DNA of 64,000 nucleotides. Origin: Sordariomycetes sp. S80-01Y (lineage: Eukaryota > Ascomycota > Sordariomycetes). This document shows, one piece after another, positions 4,552-27,306 of this stretch. Every line of letters starts with the position of its first letter. Position 1 is the stretch's first letter. Below the pieces are notes generated by a model. The model was not told the DNA's origin, did no database searches, and saw only the letters and a list, made by a program, of their open reading frames with translations. The stretch covers positions 1,054,001 to 1,118,000 of the forward strand of contig JAXQJY010000026.1 in NCBI GenBank assembly GCA_037042185.1, given 5' to 3'. The translations under genes were made by a program, and so were the position numbers.

Positions 4552-6163
4552 ATGGATCTGGTTGACGAGCTTTTGCGTAGACGCAAGCCTCCGTTCTTGT
4601 TGAAGATCCGGTCTTCGACGAGTCTCATTGTCACGACATGCTCGTTCGCTGTGCTCACAGTCTGTTACCCGTTCCAAGATTTCGCGCGTGGAGCTCTGAC
4701 GTTACACAGGACGTTTTTTTGTACGCCGTGATTGTGCCTGTCCTGCCGTTCTCGTTAGTTGACAGGGCCGGCATCGATGAGGGTCGAAGTAGGGACCCCG
4801 GCTATTACACCGTCTACTGACCCAGCTTACATGTTACAGTCCAGTACTGGGTTTCAATCTCCCTGGCCGTCTATGGTGCTGCTCTTCTGGTCTCGTCGCG
4901 TGAGTCAACAAATGTGCAATGCGAATATTCACTGACCCCTCAGCTATCTGGGGCTACTTGGCCGACCGGATCCGCAACCGCAAAGTACCCATGCTGTTCG
5001 GACTCGTACTTCTCAGCGGCGCGACGGTGTTCCTGTGCGTCGCGACCAACATAGCTATGTTCCTCGTCGGTCGAGCCTTGCAGGGCCTGTCTGCAGCTCT
5101 TACCTGGACCGTTGGTCTGGCCCTTGTCGTCGACACGGTTGAACCGGCTCACATTGGCATGGCGATGGGCTGGATAGGCGCAGCAACGAGCCTGGGTATC
5201 ATGATGGCTCCGCTCCTCGGCGGCGTCGTGTACGGAAAGGGTGGCTACTACGCTGTCTTTGCCATGTGCTTTGGCCTTTTGGCCGTGGACATAGTTCTAC
5301 GGCTGGCAGTAGTCGAGGTCAAGGAGGCGCGAAAATGGCTGCCATCCGAGCAAAGCGCCGACGGACCTCTGGCAAGCCCTGCTCCTGCACCGGAGCCTCT
5401 CTCATCGCGCGACGACGCTATCCAGCCGCACGCCGAGCCACAGCCGACCGATCCCGAAAAGGGGTCAGCCCGCGAACTCCCCCCAACTGAAACCCCTCCA
5501 AAAGACAGCTTCCGCCAAACCTTACTCCCGTTGCTCGGTCTTCTGCGCAAGCCTCGCCTCCTCGGCGCTCTGTGGGGGACACTCGTCCACTCCGTCATCC
5601 AGACCTCGCTCGACAGCACCTTGCCACTGCTCGTGGAGACAACCTTCCATTGGAACTCAATCGGTGCGGGTCTGATCTTTCTCCCCCTCGTCTTGCCCTG
5701 CGCGCTGGGACCCCTCGTCGGCATGCTAGGCGACAGGTACGGGCCGAAGTGGCTCGCAACGGCTGGCTTCTTCCTGGCGGCTCCCTTCCTGGTCTGCACG
5801 CGCTTCGTGGAAGACAACAGCATGGCCCACAAGATCATGCTCTGTGGGCTTCTCGTCGGCCTCGGCATAGCGATTGTGCTTGTCTTTGGCCCTCTCATGG
5901 CTGAAATCACCTGGTCCGTTGTTGGAGATGAAAACGAAGTCTCGGACGAGGTAAAGAGCACTGCACCCTATGCGCAAGCTTATGGCCTGTACAATGTGGC
6001 CTTTTCAGGGGGCGCCATGATAGGACCCATCATGGGAGGTATGATCAGGGAGGAGGCTGGCTGGCCGACGGTGGGCTGGGCAATGGGCATCCTGGCCGTC
6101 TTTACGGCAGTGGTACAGCTCATCTGGGTGGGACACACCTTGAAGTTCTGGAAACGATCTTGA
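4552..6163 (+). CDS. MFS transporter, multidrug/VMAT-like (DHA1 type)
   Basis: Proton-driven exporter of the major facilitator superfamily. Four exons (4552-4659, 4710-4788, 4840-4899, 4944-6163) give 488 aa, usual for a 12-segment carrier. The start is ATG in CACCATGG. TM1 is followed by VIVPVLPF, and the loop 2-3 motif A reads GYLADRIRNRK; the second and third introns split the codons around IQYWVS and SSPIWG. A long, Pro/Glu-rich cytoplasmic loop (about residues 250-310) separates the two halves, and the second half begins at a conserved RKPRLLG stretch. The family includes fungal drug and metabolite exporters annotated as vesicular-monoamine-transporter-like; the substrate cannot be read from sequence. 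No biosynthetic cluster is next to it. Confidence 0.88.
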
Positions 6164-13389: not shown

Positions 13390-15356
13390 ATGGGAGTCTA
13401 CAACAAGCTCGCCGACCACATCAACGAGGTCGACGTCATCATCGCCGGTGGTAGGTGTGCCCATCAACAGAGCGAGAAAGCACTAATATCTGTGGGGTCC
13501 AGGCGGAACAGCAGCATGCGTGATCGCCGGCCGCTTGGCTGAGTCCGATCCAGGCCTCTCCATTCTCGTCATCGAGGGCGGCCAGGACAACCGCGGGATG
13601 CAGAACGTAGAGCACCCAGCCTTCTTCCTGGACCACCTGCAACCGACCAGCAAGAACACCCTGTTCTACAAGGGCAACAAGTCCGAGAAGCTCGGTGGAA
13701 GAGAGGCCATCGTGCCGTCTGGTGGCGTGCTCGGCGGCGGCTCGTCCATCAACTTCATGATGTACACGCGTGCTCAGCGCTCCGATTTCGATTCTTGGAA
13801 GACACCTGGGTGGTCAGCTGACGAGCTTCTGCCTTACATGAAAAAGGTCAGTTTTTGAGGGTCGCGGGGCCTTTGACTGACGGGTTGCAGCTCGAGACGT
13901 ACCACGGTCCCGGAGACAAGAAGGTCCACGGAGACTCAGGCCCAGTGCACGTTTCCGACGGCACGTTTCGATCCGAGTATTCGGAGAGCGAGTTCATCAA
14001 AGCCTCCCATGAGGTTGGATGGCCCGAGGTCACAGATCTGCAGACGCTCGACGCCAACAACGGAACGCAGCGGTGGCTGCGCACGGTTGGCAAGGACGGG
14101 AAGCGCCAGGATGCTGCCCGAGTCTACCTCCACGACAAGCTTGAAGGCGACAAGTACCCGAATCTTCACGTCCTGGTGGAGTCAAAGGTTGTCCGAGTCT
14201 TGTTAGACGACGACAAGCGCGCTGCTGGCGTGGAGTACACCCCCAACCCCGAGTTTCAGACCATGCTCGGGACGACCCAGCACCCAAAGAAACAAGTCAA
14301 GGCACGGAAGCTGGTTGTGGTGTCATGCGGAGCCTGCGGCACTCCTCCCGTCCTGGAAAGATCTGGACTTGGTGATTCTGCCATTCTCAAGAAGGCCGGA
14401 GTGCCCGTCCAGGTCGATCTGCCAGGTGTTGGCCGTGACTACCAAGATCATCAGCTGACTCTTCTCCCGTACTTTTCGAGCCTCAAGTCTCACGAGACGC
14501 TTGACGAGATCCTTAGAAACCCTGGCGGCCGCAAGGAGCTGATAGAGAAGAAAGACCCCCGTCTTGGCTGGAACTCGATCGACGCATGCTCCAAGCTGCG
14601 CCCCACCCAAGAAGACGTCGATGCCCTGGGACCGGAGTTCCAGGCCGCGTGGGAGAAGGACTTCAAGAACGCCCCTGACAGACCTCTCATGTTGATGGGC
14701 CTTGTTTCATGGCAAGTTCAGGATCCAACGTGCAGCGCCGCAAGCTAACAGCGCATAGTTTCCTGGGCGACCCCGCCAGCGTTCCCGAGGCCGGTTATCT
14801 CACTGTTGGAAACTACACCGCGTACCCTTACTCCAGAGGGCACATGCACATCACGGGACCCGAGGTCACGGATCCCCTGGACTTCGAGGTGGGGTTCCTG
14901 AACGACGACAACGACATCGACCTGAAGAAGCAAATGTGGGCGTACAAGAAGCAGCGGGAGATCATGCGCCGCACGGCCATGTTCCGAGGCGAGCTCGGGC
15001 CTGGTCACCCTGCCTTCCCCGAAGGATCGGCAGCGGCCTGCAGCGCTGTCGACGGCCCGCTCAAGGACGTCAAGGATATCCAGTACTCTGCCGAGGACGA
15101 CAAGGCCATCGAGCAGTGGATCCGGGAGAACGTCAACACGACGTGGCACTCCATAGCTACGGCCAAGATGGCGCCTCGCGAGCAGAACGGCGTCGTCGAC
15201 CCGAATCTGAATGTCTGGGGCACCAAGGGGTTGAAGATTGCGGACATGAGCATCCCTCCCATGAACATTGGTGCGAATCTCAACAACACGGCCTTGACGA
15301 TTGGCGAGAAGGCGGCAGACATCATCAAGAAGGAGCTTGGTCTCGTGGGTGCTTAG
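13390..15356 (+). CDS. GMC oxidoreductase, alcohol (methanol) oxidase type
   Basis: FAD enzyme that oxidises a primary alcohol to an aldehyde with release of hydrogen peroxide. Exons 13390-13450, 13503-13846, 13891-14711 and 14759-15356 give 607 aa. Intron 1 interrupts the FAD-binding motif GGGTAACVIAGR (about residues 20-31). The GMC signature GGGSSINFMMYTR, the second signature LVVVSCGACGTPPVLERSG and GVGRDYQDH follow in order as in yeast alcohol oxidase. The active-site pair is His539 (TTWHS) and Asn582 (GANLN). Intron 3 uses a GC donor (TG|GCAAGT). The protein ends at KELGLVGA, without the roughly 30-residue tail and peroxisomal targeting tripeptide of yeast methanol oxidase, so its location is open. 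It faces the amidase gene tail to tail, 67 bp apart. Substrate unknown; the methanol-oxidase clade is the best guess. Confidence 0.9.
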
Positions 15357-15423
15357 TGGATGGCGCATTCTTTAGCTAGGTAATACCAATTCAGACGCAT
15401 CAGGACGAGCGTGCCGACTACAT

Positions 15424-17233
15424 CTAGTTCCTCCCCATGGCCCGCTCAATCTCGACCAGCGCAGCAAGCACCTTCTCGTCGTGCTGCCTCCGCCCGATGA
15501 TCTGAAGATTAACAGGCGCGTGCGCGTACGTCTCAGGGTCGTACAGGTCGTAGCAGAACTTGTCCTCTGCATTCTTGGGCTGGTAGCCAACGTCCTTGGG
15601 GTCCTTCTGCGGGTCGACGGTAGTAACGGGGAAGACCGCACCGGGGTAGTCGAGCAGGTTCCAATTCGATGTGTAGCCCCAGTAACGGGACTGCTCGTGA
15701 GGGGGCGCAGCTCCGAAGGACGGAGGGCAGAGGATGACATCTACTTCTTGCCCATCTGCCGCCCCTGTCTCCGTCCAGGCCACGGCGTATGCGGTGCGGT
15801 ATTCTTCTCTCTCGGCAACGCGCTAGCAGCGGTTAGCCGGTGCCTCAAAGCATAACCTAAACACTCACCTCCCACAGCTCGTGCTGCGACAGTGCCTTGA
15901 CGGAGGGCTGCTCCTCAATGATAAACTTAGTCAGGGGCAGGACGGGCTCTCCGGTCTCCTTAAGCTTCCCGAGGACCTCCTCTCCGCCGTCAGGCCAGTA
16001 CAGCGACGAGGTAATCTCCCAACCCTTCTTGTGATTCAGCTTCTCACAGTCCCAGTCCACGACGGTCATGCCGGCCTTTTTACAGGCATCGGCAACCTCC
16101 TTGAGCGCGCGGAGCATGGGAGGGTGCGGCTTCACCACGCCGTCCCACCACTGGACCGCAACCTTCAGGGGCTTGGTGAAGCTGACGGGCGTCCAGGGCT
16201 TGGCGGTCAACGAAGGGTCGAGACGCCATGGCTCGCTTACCAAGGCAGCCTTCATGATGAGCTCAAGGCTTTCCCGGTCCGTGGTCATGGGCCCGGGTGT
16301 CGACATGATTGCCTCCTTTCCGATCATGTGGCCCCGGATGCCCAGAGAGGAGAGGCGCTTGTTCGTGGGCCTGAATCACTTAGCAAAGCACCTTGAGAGC
16401 AGTGGATGCTTACTTGAAGCCGTAGAGGCCGCAGTGGGCTGCTGGGCACCGGATGCTGCCTCCAATATCGCCGCCCATACCCTGCCTGCGTCAGATGAAG
16501 ACTCGCGTCGGGGTGCGCAACTCACCACAATGCTTCCCCTCATTCCGAGAAGGGCACTCTCGCCTCCAGAGCTTCCGCCAGGGGTCAATTTGCGGTTGTA
16601 CGGGTTGACCGTCCGGCCATAGACGTTGCTGATGGTCTCGAGGTGCATTATTGTCTGGGGCTGCGTCGTCCTGGCGTAGAAGACGCAGCCCTCGTTCCAC
16701 AGAGACTGGTAGAGGAGAGCTGGCGGGTGAGGCTTGCCGATCCAGCTGCAGCAGCTCGCGTTGGTGACGGCGCTGTTGGTGCTGCTGACGTAGCCATGGT
16801 GTTCCTTGGTAGAGATGGGTAGTCCGAAGAGCGTGCCCGTGGGCTCTGGCAAGGAGTCGAGGTGCTTTGCCCGAGCAATGGCCTCGTCCCAGAGAAGCTC
16901 CGTGAGACAGTTGGTCTGCTCCCTGTTAGCATGTGTCCCGGCGAGCGAGCTTCGAGGTTGTCATACCGCTTCATGAGCCAGTGCTGCGCGTCTGAGGAAC
17001 GCACGCGTGACCTCCTCAACCGATATCTCCCTGGCTTTAAGAGCAGCCAGCAGTCTCGGGGCGGGATAGCGTTCCGTCAGCTCGAGCTCGCGCTCGGAGA
17101 GAAATGCCGCGGGCAGGTCCCTTGAGTTGAGAGGCAACTCGGCGGGCAGCCCCTGGAGTTTGGGCTCGACCTTTGCAATCGAGGCATCACGCCTCGCCCG
17201 TTCCTCGGCGACCTTCTGCTCCCAGATGGCCAT
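15424..17233 (-). CDS. amidase, acetamidase (AmdS) type
   Basis: Hydrolyses a carboxamide to acid plus ammonia or amine. Five exons (17233-16967, 16915-16526, 16481-16414, 16370-15869, 15822-15424) give 541 aa, matching fungal acetamidases of about 545 aa. The amidase-signature Ser-cisSer-Lys triad is complete: Lys in LPISTKEHHG, cis-Ser in TPGGSSGGE and the nucleophile in GGDIGGSIRCPA. The N-terminal helix (AIWEQKVAEERARRDASI) and the C-terminal DYPGAVFPVTTV and INLQIIGRRQHDE-like block are typical of the AmdS group. The divergent Zn2Cys6 gene shares its 523-bp promoter, and the alcohol oxidase gene is convergent. This group accepts many amides, so acetamide is not assured as the substrate; the gene neighbourhood suggests an amide of beta-alanine (inference). 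Confidence 0.93.
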
Positions 17234-17756
17234 GGTGATTCAGCGTGCGAGGCGTTGTCGTGACTGATATCCGATGAGGGGCAATCGTACGGCGGAGTGG
17301 CGGATACAAACTGGGGTACGTCCTCAATGCGAAGACTATCGAGCGATGAACAGGAGTGCAGGCACAAGTAAGACGCAATCCAGAACAGCTGACTGGGGGT
17401 TGTTGGAACGCGGGAGGGGAGATCTCGCCTCGATGGTCTTATTAGGGGCTCGGCTGGGCGGGCGATAGCACCAAACCCCATCGATCGAAGCCCCTATCAG
17501 CCCCGTTCCAGCGCCGACAGACGTCCCTGGCACCTGTAATGGCGAGCGATAGCGGCCCACAGCGGCGTGGACGGAGGTGGGGTAGTGCCGTAACGTCGGG
17601 GCCTCGCGCTAGCGAGGGGCGCTGTTAGGGGTTCTCCAACGGCGCCCGTCCCCGCCGTCGTATTAATCTGGCCTCCCCGCCCCGATTACGCTGAACACGC
17701 GCAGTCATCCCGCAGCACTCTTCCAGCAACACGCCCGCGCTCACCACCTCGCCGTC
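17234..17756. promoter_or_regulatory. divergent promoter, amidase and Zn2Cys6 regulator
   Basis: 523 bp between two outward-facing starts. Several CGG triplets lie at about 17550-17600, the half-site used by Zn2Cys6 proteins, and an inverted repeat sits at 17602-17617. No open frame of note. Autoregulation and control of the amidase by the neighbour are plausible but not shown. Confidence 0.5.
17602..17617. promoter_or_regulatory. inverted repeat in divergent promoter
   Basis: CCTCGC, a GCTA spacer, then GCGAGG: a perfect 6-bp inverted repeat about 140 bp from the regulator start and 370 bp from the amidase start. A candidate operator for a dimeric regulator. Confidence 0.3.
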
Positions 17757-19392
17757 ATGACGCCAACTGCAGGGCAATCTACGCGTTCAGGGCCGCCCCG
17801 AAGACGGGTTGGGTCCAGACACGACAAGACAGGCTGCCTGACCTGTCGTTATCGGTTCGCCAGGCCCCTCCCCTTTCCGCCGGACCGATGCTGACCTGCG
17901 CCCTGCCCTGGGCGCGATAGGCGCAAGAAGTGTGTTGAGAACACCTTTCCCAACTGCGGAGCGTGCATGCGCTTGAATCTGAAGTGCATCCGCGCGCCCG
18001 TGCGCAACGTGCTGCCGACCGGCTCAGCAGACGCCCAAGGTCCGGGCCACTCGACCAGCCCGAGTCAGCCCTATCCCGAGACGGCAGCCCCCCTGAATCA
18101 AGGGCTTCAGCCGTGCACCTGGACAGGCACTGCTGCGTCCGGGGAACGCGTGGAGTCCCCGCATCACCGCCACGTGTTCCGCTACTATGTGACGGTTCTG
18201 GCGTACCATCTCACAGTGAGCGAGAGGTTCAACTCCTTCCTTTCAGGTAAGCGAGACGTGCCGCGTGGGAAGTGCTGGGCTGACGGTCTGAGCTCTGCTG
18301 CCCATGGCGATGGAATCGCCGCCCCTTCGCGATTCCCTCCTCGCCTTTGCCGCAGGGCACCTCTCTCTAACCGACCGATCGTACAAGCTGCCTGCCTTGG
18401 AAGCCCGGTCACGGGCTCTATGTAGTCTTGCTAAGTCGGTCAATATGTCTCTGGACGAGATAGGACACCGCGAGGCCAACGTGGCGGCTTGCCTCACGTT
18501 CGTGCTGCACGACGTAGGAGTCGAAGCCCAAGGGGGATGGGAGGGTCATCTGAAAGCGGCGCAGCATATCATCATGACCGCAAAGGCAGTCTCGAGCTCA
18601 GGGAAAGTCCTGGAAGGGCCAGATGCCTTCAAGACGAGCTCGGAGGGAGAATGGATCCTGCGGAATTTCGCCTACCACGACATCATCGGGTGCATCACTA
18701 TGCGAAAACGACCGCTGCTCGGCGCGGCCTACCTGAGCGACATTGCCGATGTTGTGGACAGCTACATCGGAGTCGCCACGGACCTGCTCGTCTACGCCGC
18801 CGAGGTTGGGCGCGTCGAGGAAGAGACGTATGTCGAAGAGGGTACGCCTCCCGATGGCGTCCGACAGAAGGTCACGACCTTTCACCGGCGATGCGCAGAC
18901 CTTGAGCAGCGGCTGCAGACCTGGAAGTGCCAGGACGGCGCAGCGACCGAGTTGGCTGCCGTGGCTTATGCGTATCGAAGCGCCATCCTCATTGTCCTGT
19001 ACAGGCTGGTGCGAGGCAGGTTAAGGGCGGGCTACTTCTCCAGCGTGAGCGACGCAGCTTGCAATATCCGGGCGAGCGAGTCAATACGAGGCAAGATAGA
19101 CAAGCACGTCAAGACCATCCTCGTCCACGTCGCGGAAGTGCCGCTGGGAGCCACACCGGAGTCGCCGCTGCTGTTTCCGCTCTTCATCGCCGGCGGCGAG
19201 GCGTTGCATGAAGAACAGATGGAAGCAGTCCGAAAGAGGCTGCTGAACACGTTGAAGCAGAGGCGGTTCCAGAACATCTGCACGGCGCTGGAGGTCTTGG
19301 AGGATCTATGGCGGCGGCGTGGAATAGGTGAGCCAGACGTTGACTGGTCCGATGTTCTGGATGCGAGCGGGAAGCATCTCCTCTTGACATGA
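17757..19392 (+). CDS. Zn2Cys6 transcription factor
   Basis: Nuclear DNA-binding regulator. Exons 17757-17854, 17921-18246 and 18293-19392 give 507 aa. The N-terminal cluster is CX2CX6CX7CX2CX6C (CLTCRYRRKKC then CGAC and LKC, about residues 29-55), and intron 1 cuts it between two arginines. A basic N-terminus (PPRRRVGSRHDK) precedes it. After a Ser/Pro-rich linker comes a helical fungal-specific regulatory domain of the PF11951 type, starting near FRYYVTVLAYHLTVSERFN and running to the C-terminus with HLKAAQHIIM and FQNICTALEVLEDLWRRR. Length and layout are normal. It diverges from the amidase and converges on an anion permease gene, so it is the obvious candidate local regulator of these genes (inference). 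Confidence 0.92.
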
Positions 19393-19697
19393 GGCCTCAA
19401 AAGATGGATATTCTGATCCGCAAGAATTATACGCTCCTGGACATTTGTGCTCATTGCATGCGGTGCTTGGGACTCTTCGCGGCAACTGCACAGCCCCACG
19501 CATGCCCAAGCCCAGCAGACAAGGGCGATCGGAAAGCCTACGAAAGAGTCGAGAGCCGGGACCCAGCTACTCAAAAGACAGGACAGTCGAAAAGATTCAA
19601 ATATGGAATGTGCACAAGATGAAAGTGTATCAAGAGGTATGTACTGCCGTTGCTCGCCAAACTCGCCATGGCGACTGACCGCATCCGCCACGCCGTC
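19393..19697. other. short convergent gap
   Basis: 305 bp between the convergent ends of the regulator and permease genes. Presumably the two 3' untranslated regions; no other feature seen. Confidence 0.6.
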
Positions 19698-21323
19698 TCA
19701 CAATATGTACTCGAAATCGAGCGACTTGTCCCCAATCTGTCCGTTGTCCGTGATGCCCTCAGCCCTCTGCTTGGCCTTGATCTGGTTGCGTCTCCGGAGA
19801 AGGAAGTAGATGATGGCCACGCCGAGCCCAGCGACGAACTCCATCGACAGACTGATGGCGTTCCCCAGGATGAAGCTGAATATGTTAGCACTGACTCCTC
19901 GTGGCTTGTGGGCCGCGGAACTAACCGAGGGGCTGTGTAGTTGGGGTAGACCTGGCTGGCCGCCACGCCGGAGATGTTGGCGATGGACAGGACGATGGGC
20001 AGGGCTGCGCTGCGCTTGTAGTCGGGCTTGATGTTGTTGGAGACCCACGCGAGCACCAGCGTGTTGTACGTGTAGACTCCCGAGCAGAGGAACATTGCGA
20101 AGAAGCCGGCGCCGACGCTGGCAGTGCCGATGACGATGGCGTAGCCGATGATGACGACGATGGGCACCAGGGCGGCGAAGATGGCTCGCTTGCCGACGCG
20201 GTCCGAGAGCCATGTGACGGCGCCGAGGAAGATGCACGCCACGACGTAGACGGGAATGGTCAGGTAGTTAACCTGGAGAGACTCGAAGCCCATGCCGCGG
20301 ATGATGGTGGGCAGGAAGATGCCGAAGCCGAACAGCGGGATGCCTGCGCAGAAGATGCTGAGAGCGCTGATCCAGACGACGACGTCCGTCAGCGCCATGA
20401 CGACGTACGACCAGGAGAATCCCTCGTCCTCGCCCGTGTAGGCAACGTCACGCTTGATCCTCTGCTCGATGAGGGCGTTCTCTTCCTTGCTGAGGAACCA
20501 GGCGCTGGAGGCGCTCTTCGGCAGAGTCAGGAAGGCCACGATGCCAAGGAAGAGCGAGATGGCGCCTTCGACGATGAAGAGCCACCTCCACGCCTCCAGC
20601 CCTTGCCTGGCACCCATGCGCTGGATGCCGTAGGCGATGAGCCCTCCGAAGGCTCCCGAGATGGCGGTAGCGCCGTACAGGGTCGCGACGCGTTTTCCCT
20701 GGCTGCGGCGCGGGTAGATCGTCGAGATGAGGAAGGTCAGGGCCGGGACGAGACCAGCTTCGGTCGCACCGAGGAGCAGACGGCAGGCGATGACCTGATG
20801 GTAGTTATGGCAGAAGCCCGTGCCGATGGTGATGGCGCTCCAGCCGATGATGGCGATGGCGAGGACCCAGTTGGCGCCGTACCTCTTGACGGCGATGACC
20901 CAGGGCAGCTCGAAGACGACGTAGGTGACGTAGAAGAGGGACGAGATATTGGCGAACTCGTTGCCCTTCAAGCCCAGGTCCTCCTCGAAGCCAAAGATGC
21001 GAGCGTTTCCTGATGGGGGTTAGCAAGAGAATCGATCTCTTAGAGCAGGATTCCGCTGCTCCAAACTACATACCAATGTTGGTCCGGTCGAGGTAGGACA
21101 AGATCATGATGATGACCAGCTGGGGCATGAAAAACATGTCAAACTTTCGAACGACCTTGCTCTCCTTCGCAGGGTCGATGTAGATTGCGGCAACGGTGCC
21201 GTCGGTGGACCCCGGCATGTTGTCGACAGACTCCTCAGGCACCTTCATGTTGGCGGACTCCTCGGTTGATTTCAAGTTGCTCCCAGAGCCCTCGAGAGTC
21301 TTCAGATTGCGGTCTTCAGCCAT
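19698..21323 (-). CDS. anion:cation symporter family permease (Dal5/Fen2/Tna1-like)
   Basis: Plasma-membrane MFS importer of organic anions. Exons 21323-21074, 21009-19926 and 19875-19698 give 503 aa with 12 predicted segments and a hydrophilic N-tail of about 65 residues. Family marks are YLDRTNIGNARIFG at the end of TM1, NISSLFYVTYVVFELPW, the long conserved RLLLGATEAGLVPALTFLIS, and WRWLFIVEGAIS at the end of TM6. The loop 8-9 motif A copy reads WLSDRVGKR. Relatives carry allantoate, pantothenate, nicotinate, biotin precursors or ureidosuccinate; the substrate is usually a small carboxylate with an amide or ureido group. The setting between an amidase/regulator pair and an omega-aminotransferase suggests import of an amide for catabolism (inference). 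Confidence 0.92.
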
Positions 21324-23032
21324 TGTGAGGACGAGAGAAGTTGAGGTGCGAAGCGTCAGCAGATGTGGAGGCTCAGCGATAACGAAGCCGCGAAGGAACA
21401 CTCAGGTGGATCTTGCAACGGGAACAAAGTATCTCCGCACTCACAAAGAGCAACTTGGGTCTTCGTGTACGATGAAGAGCAGAGCTCGGATATCCTGAGG
21501 AAGCAGGACTGCGGGAGAGGCTCGCCAATCGTATAAATACAGTCCGCGGCTGTGAGCAGCCCTCGCCCAGCGCCGGCGCGAGGCCCCACCTCCACATTCG
21601 TTATGGGGACGTCGGACCCGGCAATCCGTGCACGCGCTACGCGGCTGCGCTCGTGGACCCATCTTCTCCAATAATTGGCGTGGCCTTTATCAGGACGTAA
21701 CGATACGGGGTGGAACTCGTCGAGACGCCAACTACGCCGGACCCTCCTTGCATGGCTGGGCGTTGCTCGCTGACCAGGGCGTGCTACCAAGGGAGTGATT
21801 CGTTACCACGAGATGGTCTGTTGGACGAGTGGTCCCCTGATGGCGTTGCGGAGTGCTCGAGATATGCTGGGGCTCGACCATTGGTTTTTCTCTGCCTTTC
21901 TATCTCGGTGTATCAGCAGCTTGTTTCCCCCACAGCGAGGTCCTGTTCAAGCTGGACCCAATGGCAAGTGTAGCCAGCATCCAGCGCAATCAGAGGCGGC
22001 GGTGTAGTGTCATGGGGTAATTCACAGGGGATTGGACTCCTGCATTTGAAGACGACGCTGTGATGTGCCTATTGACTTGGGCTACGGCCGCAGCTTCAGC
22101 TAAGAGCCAGCCTTAAGCTCGTTATAATCTCTGTACGATCGGTCAGCCTCGCTTGTAGTAGTTGCGGCCGTCAGATGAGTGTTTTGACTAGCGCTATCTG
22201 GCTCTCTTGTCGTTTCGAAAGGAAATTTCGCGCGTGCTGATGGTGGCAACTATGTACAAGTCAGGCAGCCTGTGTAGAGAACTACTTCGCTTGGAAGTTG
22301 GAGATAGGTGACCCTATGGGAGATGGTCTACGTTTGAGGAAGACTTAAATTATCTTCCTATCGAGACCCGCGGGGGATCAATGGCTGCCGCCAGGTGCTT
22401 CTTCCTTGAGTGGCTTTCGACGGCCGAAGACGTCACACGAGCCGAGCGTCCCATCGCGCCTGCCAGGCAGGTCAGAGTCGATGGATCCGGGCTCACCCAG
22501 GAGCTCCTCTGTGCCGAGACTTGGCCTACGTGCATCACTGCGCGCGGCCACGAAATCCTGAGTCGCGTAGGGCAAAGAGTGGATTGCCGATGCCGGGCGT
22601 CTAGGTCGACAGAGACGATTCCGGGCTCCCAAAACACCGCGGACTGATATGCCTGCCTAGCGCCATTGACTAAAACGCAGCCAATCAGGCGAGGCAGCGC
22701 CAATTACGCCGTGCTTGCCACGTGCGCCGGACCGAGCTCCACAGCACTTACGCCCGGCCAATCGACTACGGTGTCCACGATAGGTCCGTCCCAAAAAGGC
22801 AAAGGGTCGGTGGGAAGCCGCACCGCTTGGGCCACAGGAGAGAGCGTAGAGCCGCCTGGAACCGAGATCACCGTGAACGGAGGCTGGGACGGTTAGGAAC
22901 TCTACGACAATCAGAGACAATACTGATAGGCATCGAATAACGACTGAATTACGCTGAGATTGGAACACAGGCTCAACGTCCACTATGTGAGGCTCGAGTC
23001 TGCGCGCCTGCCATCCCTGTGCACGACGACTG
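21324..23032. other. permease promoter and intergenic
   Basis: 1.7 kb between the permease start and the 3' end of the aminotransferase gene, both on the minus strand. A TATA-like TATTTATA (minus-strand sense, 21532-21539) lies about 210 bp upstream of the permease ATG. Short overlapping open frames only; no gene supported. Confidence 0.55.
21532..21539 (-). promoter_or_regulatory. TATA-like element upstream of permease
   Basis: Read on the minus strand this is TATTTATA, about 210 bp upstream of the permease ATG at 21323. It is the only clear TATA-like motif nearby; the leader would be long. Confidence 0.3.
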
Positions 23033-24784
23033 CTAAATCTTCTCAAACGCCCGATTCACTGCTTCCCTGACCTTTGACGCTATCCTCTCCACATCCGCCT
23101 TCTTGCTGGTGTAGGCAGGCGCGAGAAGTGCGTGGTCACCATTGATGCCGTCCTTGGTACCGGTGCCCGGATACAGGCTGATGCCGATGTCGTTGAGCGC
23201 CGTCGAGTGGACTTTGCCTGCGATGCCGGCCGAGGGCGGGAAGGGCTCCTTTGTCTTTTTATCGGCCACAAATTCGAGCTAGAACAGCGTTAGATACCGT
23301 CATATTCTCATGATGCTTGCGTTTAAGTAGACTCACCGACCAGAAAAAGCCCCTGCCTCTGATGTTGCCTACGTGCGGGTGGTCATCGAGATGCTTATGC
23401 AGAAGCTCCCCCAGGTACTTTCCGTTTACGCGGACATTCTCCACGAGATTCTCCTCCGCCATGATGCGTTGAATCTCCAGAGCAGCGGCGCATCCAACTG
23501 GGTGGCCCTGGTAGGTATGGCCATGGGAAAAGGCGCTGGGTCGTGTCAGCTACGTGACGCACGATGATGTTGAGACTCACCCGCTTCCGTCTTTCAGAGC
23601 ATCTGCCACGCGGTGATTGATCAACATGCCGGCAACCGGGGCATAGCCTCCTCCCAGGCCTTTGGCAATGGTCTGGATGTCAGGCACGACGCCTTCCTGC
23701 TCCCATGCGTGCAGCGAGCCAACACGGCCCATACCAGACATGACTTCTGTTCGGAGTTCAGCGCAGCTCATGCCTTCTTCGATCTCCACGTACCGTCCAG
23801 AATAAGCAGGGCTCCGTACTTCTGGCAGACCTTCTTCATAGCCTTAAAGTAGCCTTCAGGGGCGGGGACGGTTCCGATGGTCTGTCGATTAGCACAGAAA
23901 GACCCGAATGACAACAAGACTTACCGCTCCAACGACAGGCTCCGCGACAAAAGCACACACCGTGTCTGCGCCAACCTCCTGGAACTTTTGGTCCAGCTCC
24001 TCTGCTAGCTGCTGAACATACTGCTCCGTGGTTTGTCCGTCGGTCTTGCCGCGATACTCGTTGGCGGCCGAAACACGGTGAATATTATCCAAGAGCATGT
24101 CCTGGAAGAGGTTTCTCCTCCCGACGTGACCGCTCATAGATAGGGACCCCAGGGTTGTGCCATGGTATGAGCCCTCCCGAGCGATAAAGTTGACTCGTTT
24201 CGTCTGCTTGGGGCTCAGCTCCACGTAGTACTGCCTTGCCATCTTCATGGCAGACTCCATAGCCTCGGATCCTGGCCGTCGTCAGAAAATACCGATTGTT
24301 ATCACAGAGACTCACCTGAGCACATGATGTATGCCTTGGCCATCTCCCCCCTCGTGCCCTCGATGAGGTTCGCAGCCAGCTGCTCGCCAATAGGGGTCCC
24401 GAAGAACATTGAATTGCAGTAGGAGAACTTATCAATCTGCTCGACCATCGCGTTCTTGACCCTCTCGTTGTTGTAGCCGATGCAGGCCACCCCCGCGCCG
24501 CAGGTCGTGTCCTCCATCGTCTGGCCATTCGAGAACCTGACATTGGTTCCCCTGGCCGCGACGACCTGCAAAGGTGCCGATTTCAGCGTGCGGTGAAGAA
24601 CCGCGCTGGACTCTGTTGCGAAGCCCAAAGGCGAGTTCTCCAGATCCGGTGTGTTCAACGCCGCTGCAGCGGCGGCATATTGTCTTTTGAAAGCCTGTGG
24701 TGCGCTGGAACCCAATGCTGTGGCGGGTGCACCAGCACGGCGCAGAAGCAACTGGAGGTGCCTAGGTAATATTGGGGTCAACAT
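23033..24784 (-). CDS. mitochondrial class-III omega-aminotransferase
   Basis: PLP enzyme that moves an omega-amino group (beta-alanine, GABA or similar) to a keto acid. Six exons (24784-24316, 24271-23925, 23881-23794, 23746-23581, 23535-23337, 23278-23033) give 504 aa. An Arg/Leu/Ala-rich N-terminus (MLTPILPRHLQLLLRRAGAP) predicts mitochondrial import. Core motifs are NGQTMEDTTCGAGV, CSGSEAMESAMKMARQYY, GSYHGTTLGSLSMSG, LLILDEVMSGMGR (the Asp that binds the PLP nitrogen, split by intron 3) and the Schiff-base lysine in TIAKGLGGGYAPV, then FSHGHTYQGHPVGCAA. Length is 40-50 residues above bacterial forms, explained by the presequence. It is divergent from the semialdehyde dehydrogenase gene, which would use its product if the substrate is beta-alanine or beta-aminoisobutyrate. 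DAPA or acetylornithine aminotransferase is less likely. Confidence 0.92.
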
Positions 24785-25474
24785 GGCTATTGCTTGAGCT
24801 CTGAAGACGAGGATACAAGACCGTTTGCTGTGCTGGAAGGAGGTCAATCGCAGGCCCCAGCGGCTTGATAAGGATAATACGAGGGGAAGCCTGGGGAAGC
24901 CATCATTGATGGTCGATAAGCTAAAGCCACGAAAGACCGACCCCGGTATCCAACAGCATAGCTAATTCCAGAAGCGGCGTTAGACGCGCAGAGCATCTGG
25001 GTGGATCCTGCAGGTGCTTCTTAGTCTTGTTTTCCATATCGCCTCCCCCTCCCGTATTAGCCTTATCAAAGGTCGAAGAAACTCGAATGTAGCGTGAATG
25101 GCGTCAATCCGGAACCGGCGATGACTATGCGCATAAGTTACGCCGTTTACGCTCGTATCTTACGTGCGCCAGGCTCCACTCGGCGTCAATTATGGATTCG
25201 CGGGCGAGGGGGAGGCCGCATATCTGGTGCGGCCTTGGCCGCGCTTACATGATGCGAACAGCGATTGGTGGCCACGTGCATCCAAGGTGCTAGTCTGGGG
25301 ATGAGAATCCGCGAGAGACTCCATAGTCGCCATGTTAGTCGGAGCTGCGAGGCCGGTGGCTGAAGAAGGCGAGAGAACATGTAGTCGCTGCCATCTGAGC
25401 GCCTCAAAACCGGGCCATGCGCTCGTCCAGTCCGGCTTTTTCGTCTAAAGCCTCGAAACTCATCATTACCAGAT
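24785..25474. promoter_or_regulatory. divergent promoter, aminotransferase and MMSDH
   Basis: 690 bp between two outward-facing starts. It holds three HGATAR sites: TGATAA at 24866-24871, CGATAA at 24914-24919 and TTATCA (reverse TGATAA) at 25063-25068. AreA/NIT2-type GATA factors use pairs of such sites for nitrogen control, which would suit an amino-group-releasing pathway. An ATTGG (reverse CCAAT) occurs at about 25264. Confidence 0.45.
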
Positions 25475-27306
25475 ATGATGCGTCGAGCCACCTCTCGCAA
25501 CCTGGCCGTGGCTTCTCGGGCCCGCGGATCAGCCCGTACTCTTTGTGGTCGCTCTCTCCGTGAAGCTACACCGTCATGTTCTCTGGCAGCTGGCAAAGTC
25601 CGTCGCTTTCATGCTGCTCCGAGATGTCTGCAGGGCATCTCATTGCAGTCAACGACGACCAGCTACCCTACAAATCATGATAAGGTCAAGCCGGTGGATA
25701 CCCCTTACTTTGTCGACAACAAGTTTCTCAACTCAAGCACCAAGGACTACGTCGACCTCCACGATCCCGCCACCAACAACCTGGTCACCCGGGTCCCCGA
25801 GAACACCGACGCGGAGATGACTGCCGCGGTCGACAGCGCTGAGAGGGCGTTCCGGGACTGGAGCCAGACGTCTGTTCTCAAGCGCCAGCAGATCATGTTC
25901 CGGTTCGTCCAGCTGATCCGCGAAAACTTTGAGCGTCTGGCTGCCAGCTGCACGATTGAGCAAGGCAAGACTCTGGCTGACGCCCGCGGAGATGTCCTTC
26001 GTGGAGTTCAGGTCGCTGAGGCTGCCGTGGCGGCTCCCGAGTTTTTGAAAGGGGAGCTCCTGGAAGTCTCAAAGGACATGGAGACTCGCACATATCGTGA
26101 GCCCCTGGGTGTTGTAGCTGCCATCTGCCCGTTCAGTAAGTTTTGGCCATCGGTCCTATCCTGCTTTTGATGATCGCACCGGCTGACCTGAGTCCAGACT
26201 TTCCCGCCATGGTGCCGTTGTGGTGCATCCCTATCGCCACCATCACGGGCAACACCATGATTCTGAAGCCCTCGGAACGGGACCCTGGAGCCGCCATGAT
26301 CCTTGCTGAGCTCATCGAGAAAGCTGGTTTCCCTGATGGCGTCGTAAATGTAATCCATGGTACCCATCGTTCGGTCAACTTTATCATCGACGAGCCCAGA
26401 ATCAAGGCAATCAGCTTCGTTGGCGGTAACAAGGCTGGCGAGTATATCTACGAGCGGGGATCAGCAAACGGTAAGCGGGTCCAGGCCAATCTTGGTGCAA
26501 AGAACCACGCGACAGTTCTCCCCGATGCCAACAAGAACGACTTTATCAACAGCGTCGTGGGCGCCGCGTTTGGCGCTGCTGGTCAACGTTGCATGGCTCT
26601 GACTACTCTCGTCACGGTGGGTCCGGAGACGAAGGAGTGGCTGCCCGAGATCGTCGAGCAGGTAGGTTTCGTGGACTCTTGAGGTAGACTCTGCTGACAA
26701 AAACAGGCTGGGAAGCTCAAGGTCGACGGAGGCTTCGAGGAAGGGTCTGAGCTCGGACCGGTCGTCTCTCCTCACAGCAAAGAGCGCATTGAGAAGCTCA
26801 TTGCGAGCGCCGAGGAGGAAGGCGCGACCATTCTTCTTGACGGCCGTGGCTACAAGCCCAGCAGCGGCAAGTACCCCAACGGCAACTGGGTCGGTCCCAC
26901 CGTCATCTCCAACGTCACCACCGACATGACTTGCTACAAGGAGGAGATCTTCGGACCCGTCCTGATCTGCCTGCACGTCGACACCATCGACGACGCCATT
27001 GGCCTCATCAACAAGAACGAGTACGGCAACGGCACTGCCATCTTCACGCGGTCCGGAGCCACGGCCGAAACGTACCGCAAGCGCATCGAGGCCGGCCAGG
27101 TCGGCATCAACGTACCCATCCCCGTGCCGCTGCCCATGTTCTCCTTCACCGGCAACAAGAAGAGCATCGCCGGCGGTGGTGCTAACACCTTCTACGGGAA
27201 GCCCGGCGTCAATTTCTACACTCAGCTCAAGACGGTGACTTCGCTGTGGAATTCGAAAGACGCGGTGGCGCAGAAGGCTGATGTTGCGTTCCCCACGATG
27301 GGTTAA
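25475..27306 (+). CDS. mitochondrial (methyl)malonate-semialdehyde dehydrogenase
   Basis: CoA-acylating aldehyde dehydrogenase (ALDH6): turns malonate semialdehyde to acetyl-CoA and methylmalonate semialdehyde to propionyl-CoA, with NAD+, in valine, beta-alanine and pyrimidine breakdown. Exons 25475-26135, 26198-26661 and 26707-27306 give 574 aa. The long Arg/Ser-rich N-terminus ([20 protein letters not shown]) is a mitochondrial presequence, and a second basic stretch RRFHAAPRC follows. Family marks are [33 protein letters not shown] (split by intron 1), [31 protein letters not shown], the catalytic Cys352 in [10 protein letters not shown] and the C-terminal [12 protein letters not shown]. 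The absence of a conserved Glu general base is usual for ALDH6. It pairs head to head with the aminotransferase. Confidence 0.95.

What the first reader, a model, noticed from the sequence alone, without database searches (positions are those of the whole stretch)
13390..27306. Candidate catabolic cluster for a beta-alanine amide (pantothenate-like)
Six neighbouring genes cover import (Dal5/Fen2-type permease, a group that includes pantothenate carriers), primary-alcohol oxidation (GMC oxidase), amide hydrolysis (amidase), transfer of an omega-amino group (class-III aminotransferase), and conversion of malonate semialdehyde to acetyl-CoA (ALDH6), with an embedded Zn2Cys6 regulator. Hydrolysing pantothenate would give pantoate plus beta-alanine, and the last two enzymes would consume beta-alanine. 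The gene content is seen; the shared pathway is inference. ALDH6 and aminotransferase are also ordinary valine and pyrimidine catabolism genes, so part of this could be coincidence.
Basis: partly seen in the sequence, partly recalled or inferred. Interest (0 to 1): 0.72.

Follow-up and report, generated by a model that had tools for sequence, protein, structure and literature searches.

The report
Fungal beta-amino amide catabolic cluster
Six neighbouring intact genes of a fungus look like a small set for importing an amide, cutting it and burning the released amino acid to acetyl- or propionyl-CoA; the guess that the food is vitamin B5 is not supported, and the aminotransferase is of a kind I have not seen tied to this step in fungi.

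Summary
Observation confirmed: six intact genes at 13390-27306, in the stated order and strands. Interpretation partly supported. Aminotransferase (AT) and ALDH6 are divergent across 690 bp. The AT is not the GABA-transaminase type that fungi are known to use for beta-alanine; it is NF005685/PRK07483 (541.9 vs 485). Some bacterial members sit beside beta-keto-acid cleavage enzymes (7 of 88 neighbour ORFs from 30 loci) and one beside phosphonoacetaldehyde dehydrogenase, so beta-amino-acid transamination feeding ALDH6 is reasonable. The genome has a second locus (C8) with a related regulator, a PRK07483-like AT and an amidase side by side (post hoc chance estimate 5e-4). Against pantothenate: the GMC protein keeps the small-pocket residues of alcohol oxidase, two canonical GABA-Ts lie elsewhere, and the permease has dozens of homologues here. 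No shared promoter site was found. Conservation in other fungi could not be tested. Best reading: a catabolic cluster for an unidentified beta-amino-acid amide; two unrelated neighbouring units remain a serious rival.

The parts
13390..15356 (+). GMC oxidoreductase of alcohol-oxidase (AOX) type, exons 13390-13450, 13503-13846, 13891-14711, 14759-15356; 607 aa; C-terminus LGLVGA, not PTS1-like by eye
15424..17233 (-). amidase-signature enzyme (AmdS/FAAH-like; the AmdS label is recalled, FAAH), exons 17233-16967, 16915-16526, 16481-16414, 16370-15869, 15822-15424; 541 aa; K126/S204/S228
17234..17756 (.). divergent promoter region amidase/regulator (523 bp)
17757..19392 (+). Zn2Cys6 regulator with Fungal_trans_2 domain, exons 17757-17854, 17921-18246, 18293-19392; 507 aa
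19698..21323 (-).
   Evidence: best NCBIfam TIGR00893 D-galactonate transporter, below its cut-off; no characterised Dal5-family sequence was compared
23033..24784 (-). class-III aminotransferase of family NF005685/PRK07483, 6 exons, 504 aa; residues 1-59 lie outside the family match and look like a mitochondrial presequence by eye
24785..25474 (.). divergent promoter region aminotransferase/ALDH6 (690 bp)
25475..27306 (+). ALDH6, CoA-acylating (methyl)malonate semialdehyde dehydrogenase, exons 25475-26135, 26198-26661, 26707-27306; 574 aa; residues 1-77 outside the family match, presequence-like by eye

Best explanation
A fungal catabolic gene cluster for an amide that yields a beta-amino acid. 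The MFS permease imports the compound and the amidase hydrolyses it in the cytosol. The released beta-amino acid (beta-alanine or 3-aminoisobutyrate are the two that fit ALDH6) is transaminated in mitochondria by the PRK07483-type aminotransferase to malonate or methylmalonate semialdehyde, which the adjacent ALDH6 turns into acetyl-CoA or propionyl-CoA. The AOX-type GMC oxidase deals with a small primary alcohol from the same or an accompanying substrate. The Zn2Cys6 protein is the local regulator. Shown: gene content, integrity, families, orientation, and the recurrence of amidase, AT and regulator at a second locus. Inferred: every substrate, the order of steps, cell compartments (N-termini judged by eye), co-regulation.
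For: Six intact adjacent genes. ALDH6 over the MMSDH cut-off and closest to mitochondrial (methyl)malonate-semialdehyde dehydrogenase structures. AT over the PRK07483 cut-off. Around 30 alphaproteobacterial PRK07483 genes, BKACE is the commonest neighbour family, 7 of 88 ORFs (next ABC_trans_aux, 5 of 88). L022 carries a KCE/BKACE gene directly after its AT. L025 lies in a 2-aminoethylphosphonate cluster directly after phosphonoacetaldehyde dehydrogenase; AEP is the phosphonate analogue of beta-alanine (recalled chemistry). Second locus at C8:157-165 kb with regulator (29.3% over 587 columns, the better of two regulator paralogues compared), PRK07483-like AT (40%) and amidase side by side. Chance of at least 2 of 4 such ATs lying that near one of 19 amidases: 5.35e-4 in random placement.
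Against: No promoter word of 8 or more bases and no CGG/CCG dyad is shared by all four promoter regions; 3 dyads occur in three of four, which 466 of 500 shuffles reach or exceed. In the 20 kb read at C8 there is no ALDH6, AOX or homologue of this permease at tblastn E 1e-5. The AT's nearest paralogue found (C10, 74.9%) and the ALDH6's (C15, 72.7%) have none of the other five within the 20 kb read around each. The C8 amidase is not the window amidase's best match among three compared, so the two loci are not simply one duplicated block. In the exon-by-exon search a C10 exon outranks the C8 regulator. Among the 25 listed of 45 neighbour families of bacterial members there is no amidase and no aldehyde dehydrogenase, and no background rate for BKACE was measured. 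The chance estimate was made after the pattern was seen and rests on my own grouping of exon hits into genes.
Confidence: 0.45

Rival explanations
1. Two unrelated neighbours: a mitochondrial beta-amino-acid pair (AT/ALDH6, serving beta-alanine, 3-aminoisobutyrate, pyrimidine or propionate side routes) happens to lie beside a separate amide cluster (GMC, amidase, regulator, permease).
For: 1709-bp gap between the parts, larger than the other four gaps; no shared promoter site; ALDH6 and this AT both have close paralogues away from the other genes; ALDH6-type genes act in general metabolism (PMC10061894, passages).
Against: The C8 locus places the same AT type directly beside an amidase and a related regulator, which speaks for a link between amidase and AT.
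Confidence: 0.35
2. One reading: pantothenate or pantothenol catabolism (amidase splits pantothenate to pantoate and beta-alanine; GMC oxidises pantoate or pantothenol; AT and ALDH6 consume beta-alanine).
For: The gene list permits it; the Dal5 subfamily includes the pantothenate carrier Fen2 (PMC2329640, passages).
Against: GMC keeps F105 and M107, aligned to PcAOX F101 and M103; [quoted passage not shown] PMC8753158, passages), so branched pantoate is unlikely. Permease subtype unproven. 'Pantothenase' finds 8 papers in the library; by title and abstract start none describes a fungal pathway (listing only).
Confidence: 0.08
3. A regulon of the Aspergillus AmdR/IntA kind: acetamidase plus omega-amino-acid use under one Zn2Cys6 activator, here clustered.
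For: In A. nidulans AmdR controls amdS, gatA, gabA, lamA, lamB and gatA is induced by beta-alanine (PMC8016842, passages); the window joins an amidase of that signature family with an amino-acid transaminase.
Against: The AT is not GatA type; no lactamase or GABA permease among the six genes; neither AmdS nor AmdR was compared in any call.
Confidence: 0.1

Closest known systems
AmdR/IntA regulon of Aspergillus nidulans (amdS, gatA, gabA, lamA, lamB)
   Same: amidase plus omega-amino-acid transamination under a Zn2Cys6 regulator (PMC8016842, passages; that AmdR is Zn2Cys6 and AmdS an amidase-signature enzyme is recalled)
   Different: window AT is PRK07483, not GABA-T; here clustered with ALDH6, AOX-type GMC and an MFS permease; no lactamase or GABA permease among the six
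FDB1/FDB2 xenobiotic clusters of Fusarium (PMC4726666, passages)
   Same: fungal cluster with amidase, MFS and amino-acid transporters and Zn2Cys6 regulator (FDB1, its Table 2)
   Different: FDB1 has metallo-beta-lactamase, dienelactone hydrolase and salicylate hydroxylase; the terms transaminase, aminotransferase, semialdehyde and GMC do not occur in that paper's main text
2-aminoethylphosphonate cluster around L025 (phnW, phnA, phosphonoacetaldehyde dehydrogenase, PRK07483 AT)
   Same: same AT family beside an aldehyde dehydrogenase of a beta-amino compound
   Different: bacterial, phosphonate chemistry; none of the other window proteins matches there except a 27% aldehyde dehydrogenase hit
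Aspergillus niger ald6a/ald6b malonate semialdehyde dehydrogenases (PMC10061894, passages)
   Same: ALDH6-named genes whose removal raised 3-hydroxypropionate titre
   Different: no cluster described in the passages read; their sequences were not compared

Membership tests
NF005685 / PRK07483 aminotransferase | whole-protein score over 485 bits | tested here: met
   541.9 bits, residues 60-502
Canonical eukaryotic GABA/beta-alanine transaminase (TIGR00699; GatA/Uga1) | match to TIGR00699 over cut-off | tested here: not met
   not among the best 25 of 69 families for the AT; the genome's 3 matches at E 1e-20 or better lie outside the window, 2 of them over cut-off, C8:237057 and C9:1321692
CoA-acylating MMSDH / ALDH6 | TIGR01722 over cut-off with catalytic Cys | tested here: met
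   669 vs 448.5 bits; C352 in GQRCMAL
AOX-type alcohol oxidase (CAZy label AA3_3 recalled) | best matches to alcohol oxidases, catalytic His/Asn, small-pocket residues | tested here: met
   6 of the best 7 chains are named alcohol oxidase (E 6e-148 to 2e-130), the seventh GMC oxidoreductase; the next hit is 4e-49; H539, N582; F105, M107 aligned to F101, M103
Amidase signature family | PF01425 and Lys-Ser-Ser triad | tested here: met
   290.8 bits; K126, S204, S228
AmdS acetamidase | closer to AmdS than to other fungal amidases; acts on acetamide | not tested
   no AmdS sequence in any call; label recalled
Fen2-type pantothenate permease | groups with Fen2/Liz1 rather than other Dal5 members | not testable with these tools
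   no characterised Dal5-family sequence on hand; the solved-structure search gave 3 hits, two galactonate transporter chains and one spinster fusion
Pantothenate catabolic pathway | enzyme able to oxidise pantoate | tested here: inconclusive
   pocket residues argue against it, no structure or assay
AmdR regulon | GatA-type transaminase controlled together with amidase | tested here: not met
   AT is PRK07483; regulator orthology not tested
Fungal catabolic gene cluster | linked genes with local regulator | tested here: met
   that they form one pathway is inference
Fungal catabolic gene cluster | co-induction and conserved linkage across species | not testable with these tools
   no expression data; genome has no relatives in the collection

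The most novel reading that the evidence does not exclude
PRK07483-type aminotransferases are a second, so far uncharacterised fungal route for beta-amino acids, separate from the GABA-T family, and fungi pair them with amidases and a related Fungal_trans_2 regulator in catabolic clusters. This could account for the residual transamination reported after loss of GABA-T-type enzymes in some fungi (growth on GABA in S. kluyveri, on beta-alanine in Ustilago maydis; PMC11428646, passages).
Probability: 0.25. Interest if true: 0.55.

Novelty: new member of a known kind. Interest (0 to 1): 0.4.

Why it matters
If right, it names a concrete enzyme family for a fungal transamination step that genetics left open, and gives a compact locus in which amide hydrolysis, beta-amino-acid transamination and semialdehyde oxidation can be tested together. 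Malonate semialdehyde and ALDH6 are also engineering targets for 3-hydroxypropionate production in Aspergillus (PMC10061894, passages).

Tried and rejected
Shared regulatory site: exact words of 7-10 bases over four promoter regions (two 7-mers in common, mean 0.9 and maximum 4 in 60 shuffles; none of 8 or more) and CGG/CCG dyads (3 dyads in three of four promoters, among them CGG-N10-CCG; mean 6.8 in 500 shuffles, 466 reaching 3; none shared with the three C8 promoter stretches): nothing above chance.

En-bloc duplication of the window cluster and the C8 locus: rejected, because the AT's sister is the C10 copy (100/100 in a 19-row tree) and the best amidase match of three compared is C10:3208 kb, not C8 (the C8 amidase model is incomplete, 483 aa in hand-picked pieces). 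Only the regulator has its better match there, of two compared, and the exon-by-exon search ranks a C10 exon first.

Foreign origin of the cluster: GC3 0.70-0.87 for the six genes against 0.70-0.84 for five other window genes; no sign.

Relatives of the other five window proteins near bacterial relatives of the AT: 79 of 80 loci had none at tblastn E 1e-8; one (L025) had a 27% aldehyde dehydrogenase hit. Several of these loci are short.

Published description: searches 'beta-alanine/aminotransferase/malonate semialdehyde/Aspergillus', 'AmdR/omega amino acid/beta-alanine/amdS', 'pantothenate/degradation/amidase/fungi/gene cluster', 'beta-alanine/methylmalonate-semialdehyde dehydrogenase/fungus/propionate', 'GMC oxidoreductase/amidase/aminotransferase/semialdehyde dehydrogenase/gene cluster/fungi', 'BKACE/aminotransferase', 'pantothenase', 'Dal5/Fen2/pantothenate/Aspergillus' (69) listed no paper whose title or abstract start described this cluster. 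Searches were min-term searches; some searches showed only part of their finds (20 of 26, 15 of 552, 10 of 14). Passages alone were seen of PMC4726666, PMC10512309, PMC8016842, PMC10061894, PMC8753158, PMC2329640 and PMC11428646; PMC10512309 gave nothing used here. Structure prediction was not used: spliced proteins are not given letter for letter by the DNA.

Rows dropped: for the tree, 13 of the 80 bacterial loci were chosen and nine of the 30 loci were tried, of which two passed the script's filter. Of 92 ORFs listed, 88 were given; the four left out (L132:1489-2910, L137:220-2184, L137:2188-2856, L160:1-2874) are the AT itself or overlap its place. Alignment A1 is a container of unrelated ORFs for scanning, not an alignment of relatives.
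Full report
What is there. The window is 64 kb of contig C9 (1054001-1118000) of an unnamed 30.87-Mb, 16-contig genome. Short introns, a Zn2Cys6 regulator and neighbours such as Vma22 and neurochondrin genes show a fungus; the species was not determined. The six genes of the finding were spliced by hand and all read through without a stop. Pfam finds GMC_oxred_N/C, Amidase, Zn_clus plus Fungal_trans_2, MFS_1, Aminotran_3 and Aldedh, each above cut-off. On the right, from 28643, lie a Vma22-domain gene, a pyridine nucleotide-disulphide oxidoreductase, neurochondrin and DNA ligase genes. On the left an MFS gene lies at 4919-6163, and six ORFs tested between 8 and 11 kb match no Pfam family.

What the parts are. 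The GMC protein is of the alcohol-oxidase type: of the best seven solved relatives six are named alcohol oxidase and one GMC oxidoreductase (E 6e-148 to 2e-130), and the next hit is at 4e-49. In the alignment to 6h3g, F105 and M107 stand where Phanerochaete alcohol oxidase has F101 and M103. [quoted passage not shown] The amidase is closest to an 'Amidase family protein' (8wv2) and fatty-acid amide hydrolases; the label AmdS is recalled, not tested. Its best match among three paralogues compared has 32.7% identity. The permease has a 54% paralogue on C6 and 78 matching stretches at E 1e-20 or better in the genome, some being exons of one gene and some of the window gene itself, so the family label says little about substrate. 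ALDH6 is a true MMSDH (669 vs 448.5), nearest to mitochondrial (methyl)malonate-semialdehyde dehydrogenases. In A. niger, disruption of ald6a or ald6b raised 3-hydroxypropionate titre by 83% and 45%, from which those authors infer malonate semialdehyde dehydrogenase activity (PMC10061894, passages).

The aminotransferase is the informative part. It scores 541.9 against 485 for NF005685/PRK07483, a family without a named substrate, and lies outside the eukaryotic GABA-transaminase family TIGR00699, of which the genome has two members over the cut-off elsewhere. In fungi beta-alanine transamination is ascribed to GABA-T-type enzymes, with gat1 for beta-alanine and gat2 for GABA in Fusarium graminearum. 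The same paper notes residual growth on GABA in Saccharomyces kluyveri and growth on beta-alanine in Ustilago after loss of the known enzymes (PMC11428646, passages). To get at the family's chemistry I looked at bacterial members. In 289 genomes drawn from the class of the Marinovum record L025 (by my inference Alphaproteobacteria; the tool names no groups), 75 hold a member over the cut-off. For the 30 loci returned, 88 neighbouring ORFs within 1.5 kb (mechanical ORFs, some surely spurious) were scanned. The commonest Pfam family was BKACE, the beta-keto-acid cleavage enzyme, in 7 of 88; next came ABC_trans_aux in 5 and HTH_6 in 4. NCBIfam called 3 of 88 the 3-keto-5-aminohexanoate cleavage enzyme at E 1e-30. 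I ran no background control for BKACE frequency. Two loci read more widely agree: L022 has KCE directly downstream of the AT, and L025 lies in a 2-aminoethylphosphonate cluster directly after phosphonoacetaldehyde dehydrogenase. A beta-keto acid or beta-aldehyde as AT product would explain both, and would fit malonate or methylmalonate semialdehyde for the window copy. This is inference from neighbourhood, not an assay.

Is it one cluster? For: AT and ALDH6 stand head to head across 690 bp. The genome holds four PRK07483-like genes by my grouping; the window protein and C8:1228758 are over the cut-off, while C8:161 kb and C10:1138 kb were assigned by identity and by the tree. Two of the four lie near an amidase: the window copy (5.8 kb, with regulator and permease between) and the C8:161-kb copy (about 0.6 kb). 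With 19 amidase loci by my grouping, random placement gives at least 2 of 4 that near in 0.05% of trials, an estimate made after the fact. At C8 the order is cupin, regulator, AT, amidase, transporter, SnoaL-like protein, amino-acid permease. Its regulator is the better of the two paralogues compared with the window regulator (29.3% over 587 columns, 194 bits, against 142 bits for C10:562 kb), although the exon-by-exon search ranks a C10 exon first; other, weaker regulator hits were not assembled. Against: in the 20 kb read at C8 there is no ALDH6, AOX or matching permease; AT and ALDH6 each have a close paralogue elsewhere (74.9% on C10, 72.7% on C15) with none of the other five genes in the 20 kb read and with other families around it (EOS1 and a methyltransferase on C10; calreticulin, F-box and a short-chain dehydrogenase on C15); no promoter element is shared beyond chance; and the 1709-bp gap falls exactly between the two halves. 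So amidase plus this AT plus this regulator type is a recurring combination, while ALDH6, GMC and permease are tied to it only by position here.

Pantothenate. Nothing found points to it. The alcohol-oxidase pocket argues against pantoate. The permease could not be placed in or out of the Fen2 branch, because no characterised sequence was available. Hydrolysis of pantothenate is one of many amide cleavages open to an amidase of this family. Other N-acyl beta-amino acids or beta-alanine amides fit equally well.

Limits. Compartments rest on N-termini judged by eye. Catalytic residue roles, the chemistry of 2-aminoethylphosphonate, and the AmdS and Dal5 labels are recalled. The aminotransferase tree has 19 rows and midpoint rooting; it places the four fungal copies together (100/99) in a group with two alphaproteobacterial PRK07483 rows (95/97), which is compatible with an old transfer but proves none.

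Verdict. Real genes, a sensible catabolic cluster of a known kind, substrate unknown; the PRK07483-type aminotransferase is the part worth an assay.

Noticed in passing
L104/L105 (C8:152001-172000 of the same genome): A second cluster with cupin, Fungal_trans_2 regulator, PRK07483-like aminotransferase, amidase, Sugar_tr-family transporter, SnoaL-like protein and amino-acid permease; substrate unknown.
   Followed up: partly
L108/L109 (C13:205.7-211.4 kb): A third ALDH6 (61.7% to the window copy) without a presequence-like N-terminus by eye, with an MFS permease matching the window one weakly about 3 kb away.
   Followed up: no
L025:3898-9254: Marinovum record: PRK07483 aminotransferase in a 2-aminoethylphosphonate cluster that already has phnW, phnA and phosphonoacetaldehyde dehydrogenase; its own substrate is open.
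   Followed up: partly
L022:8007-12394, L023, L024: Read in L022: PRK07483 next to KCE/BKACE, with two protocatechuate dioxygenase-like genes further on; the ORF layout is similar in L023 and L024, whose genes were not scanned.
   Followed up: no
window 14712-14758: The third GMC intron is of the GC-AG kind (GCAAGT...TAG); the other introns in the six genes are GT-AG as modelled.
   Followed up: no
AT tree, 19 rows: Four fungal PRK07483-like aminotransferases group with alphaproteobacterial PRK07483 rows, compatible with an old bacterial origin; few rows, midpoint root.
   Followed up: partly
L104:2111-2992: A SLATT_fungal membrane protein gene (PF18142) beside the C8 cluster.
   Followed up: no
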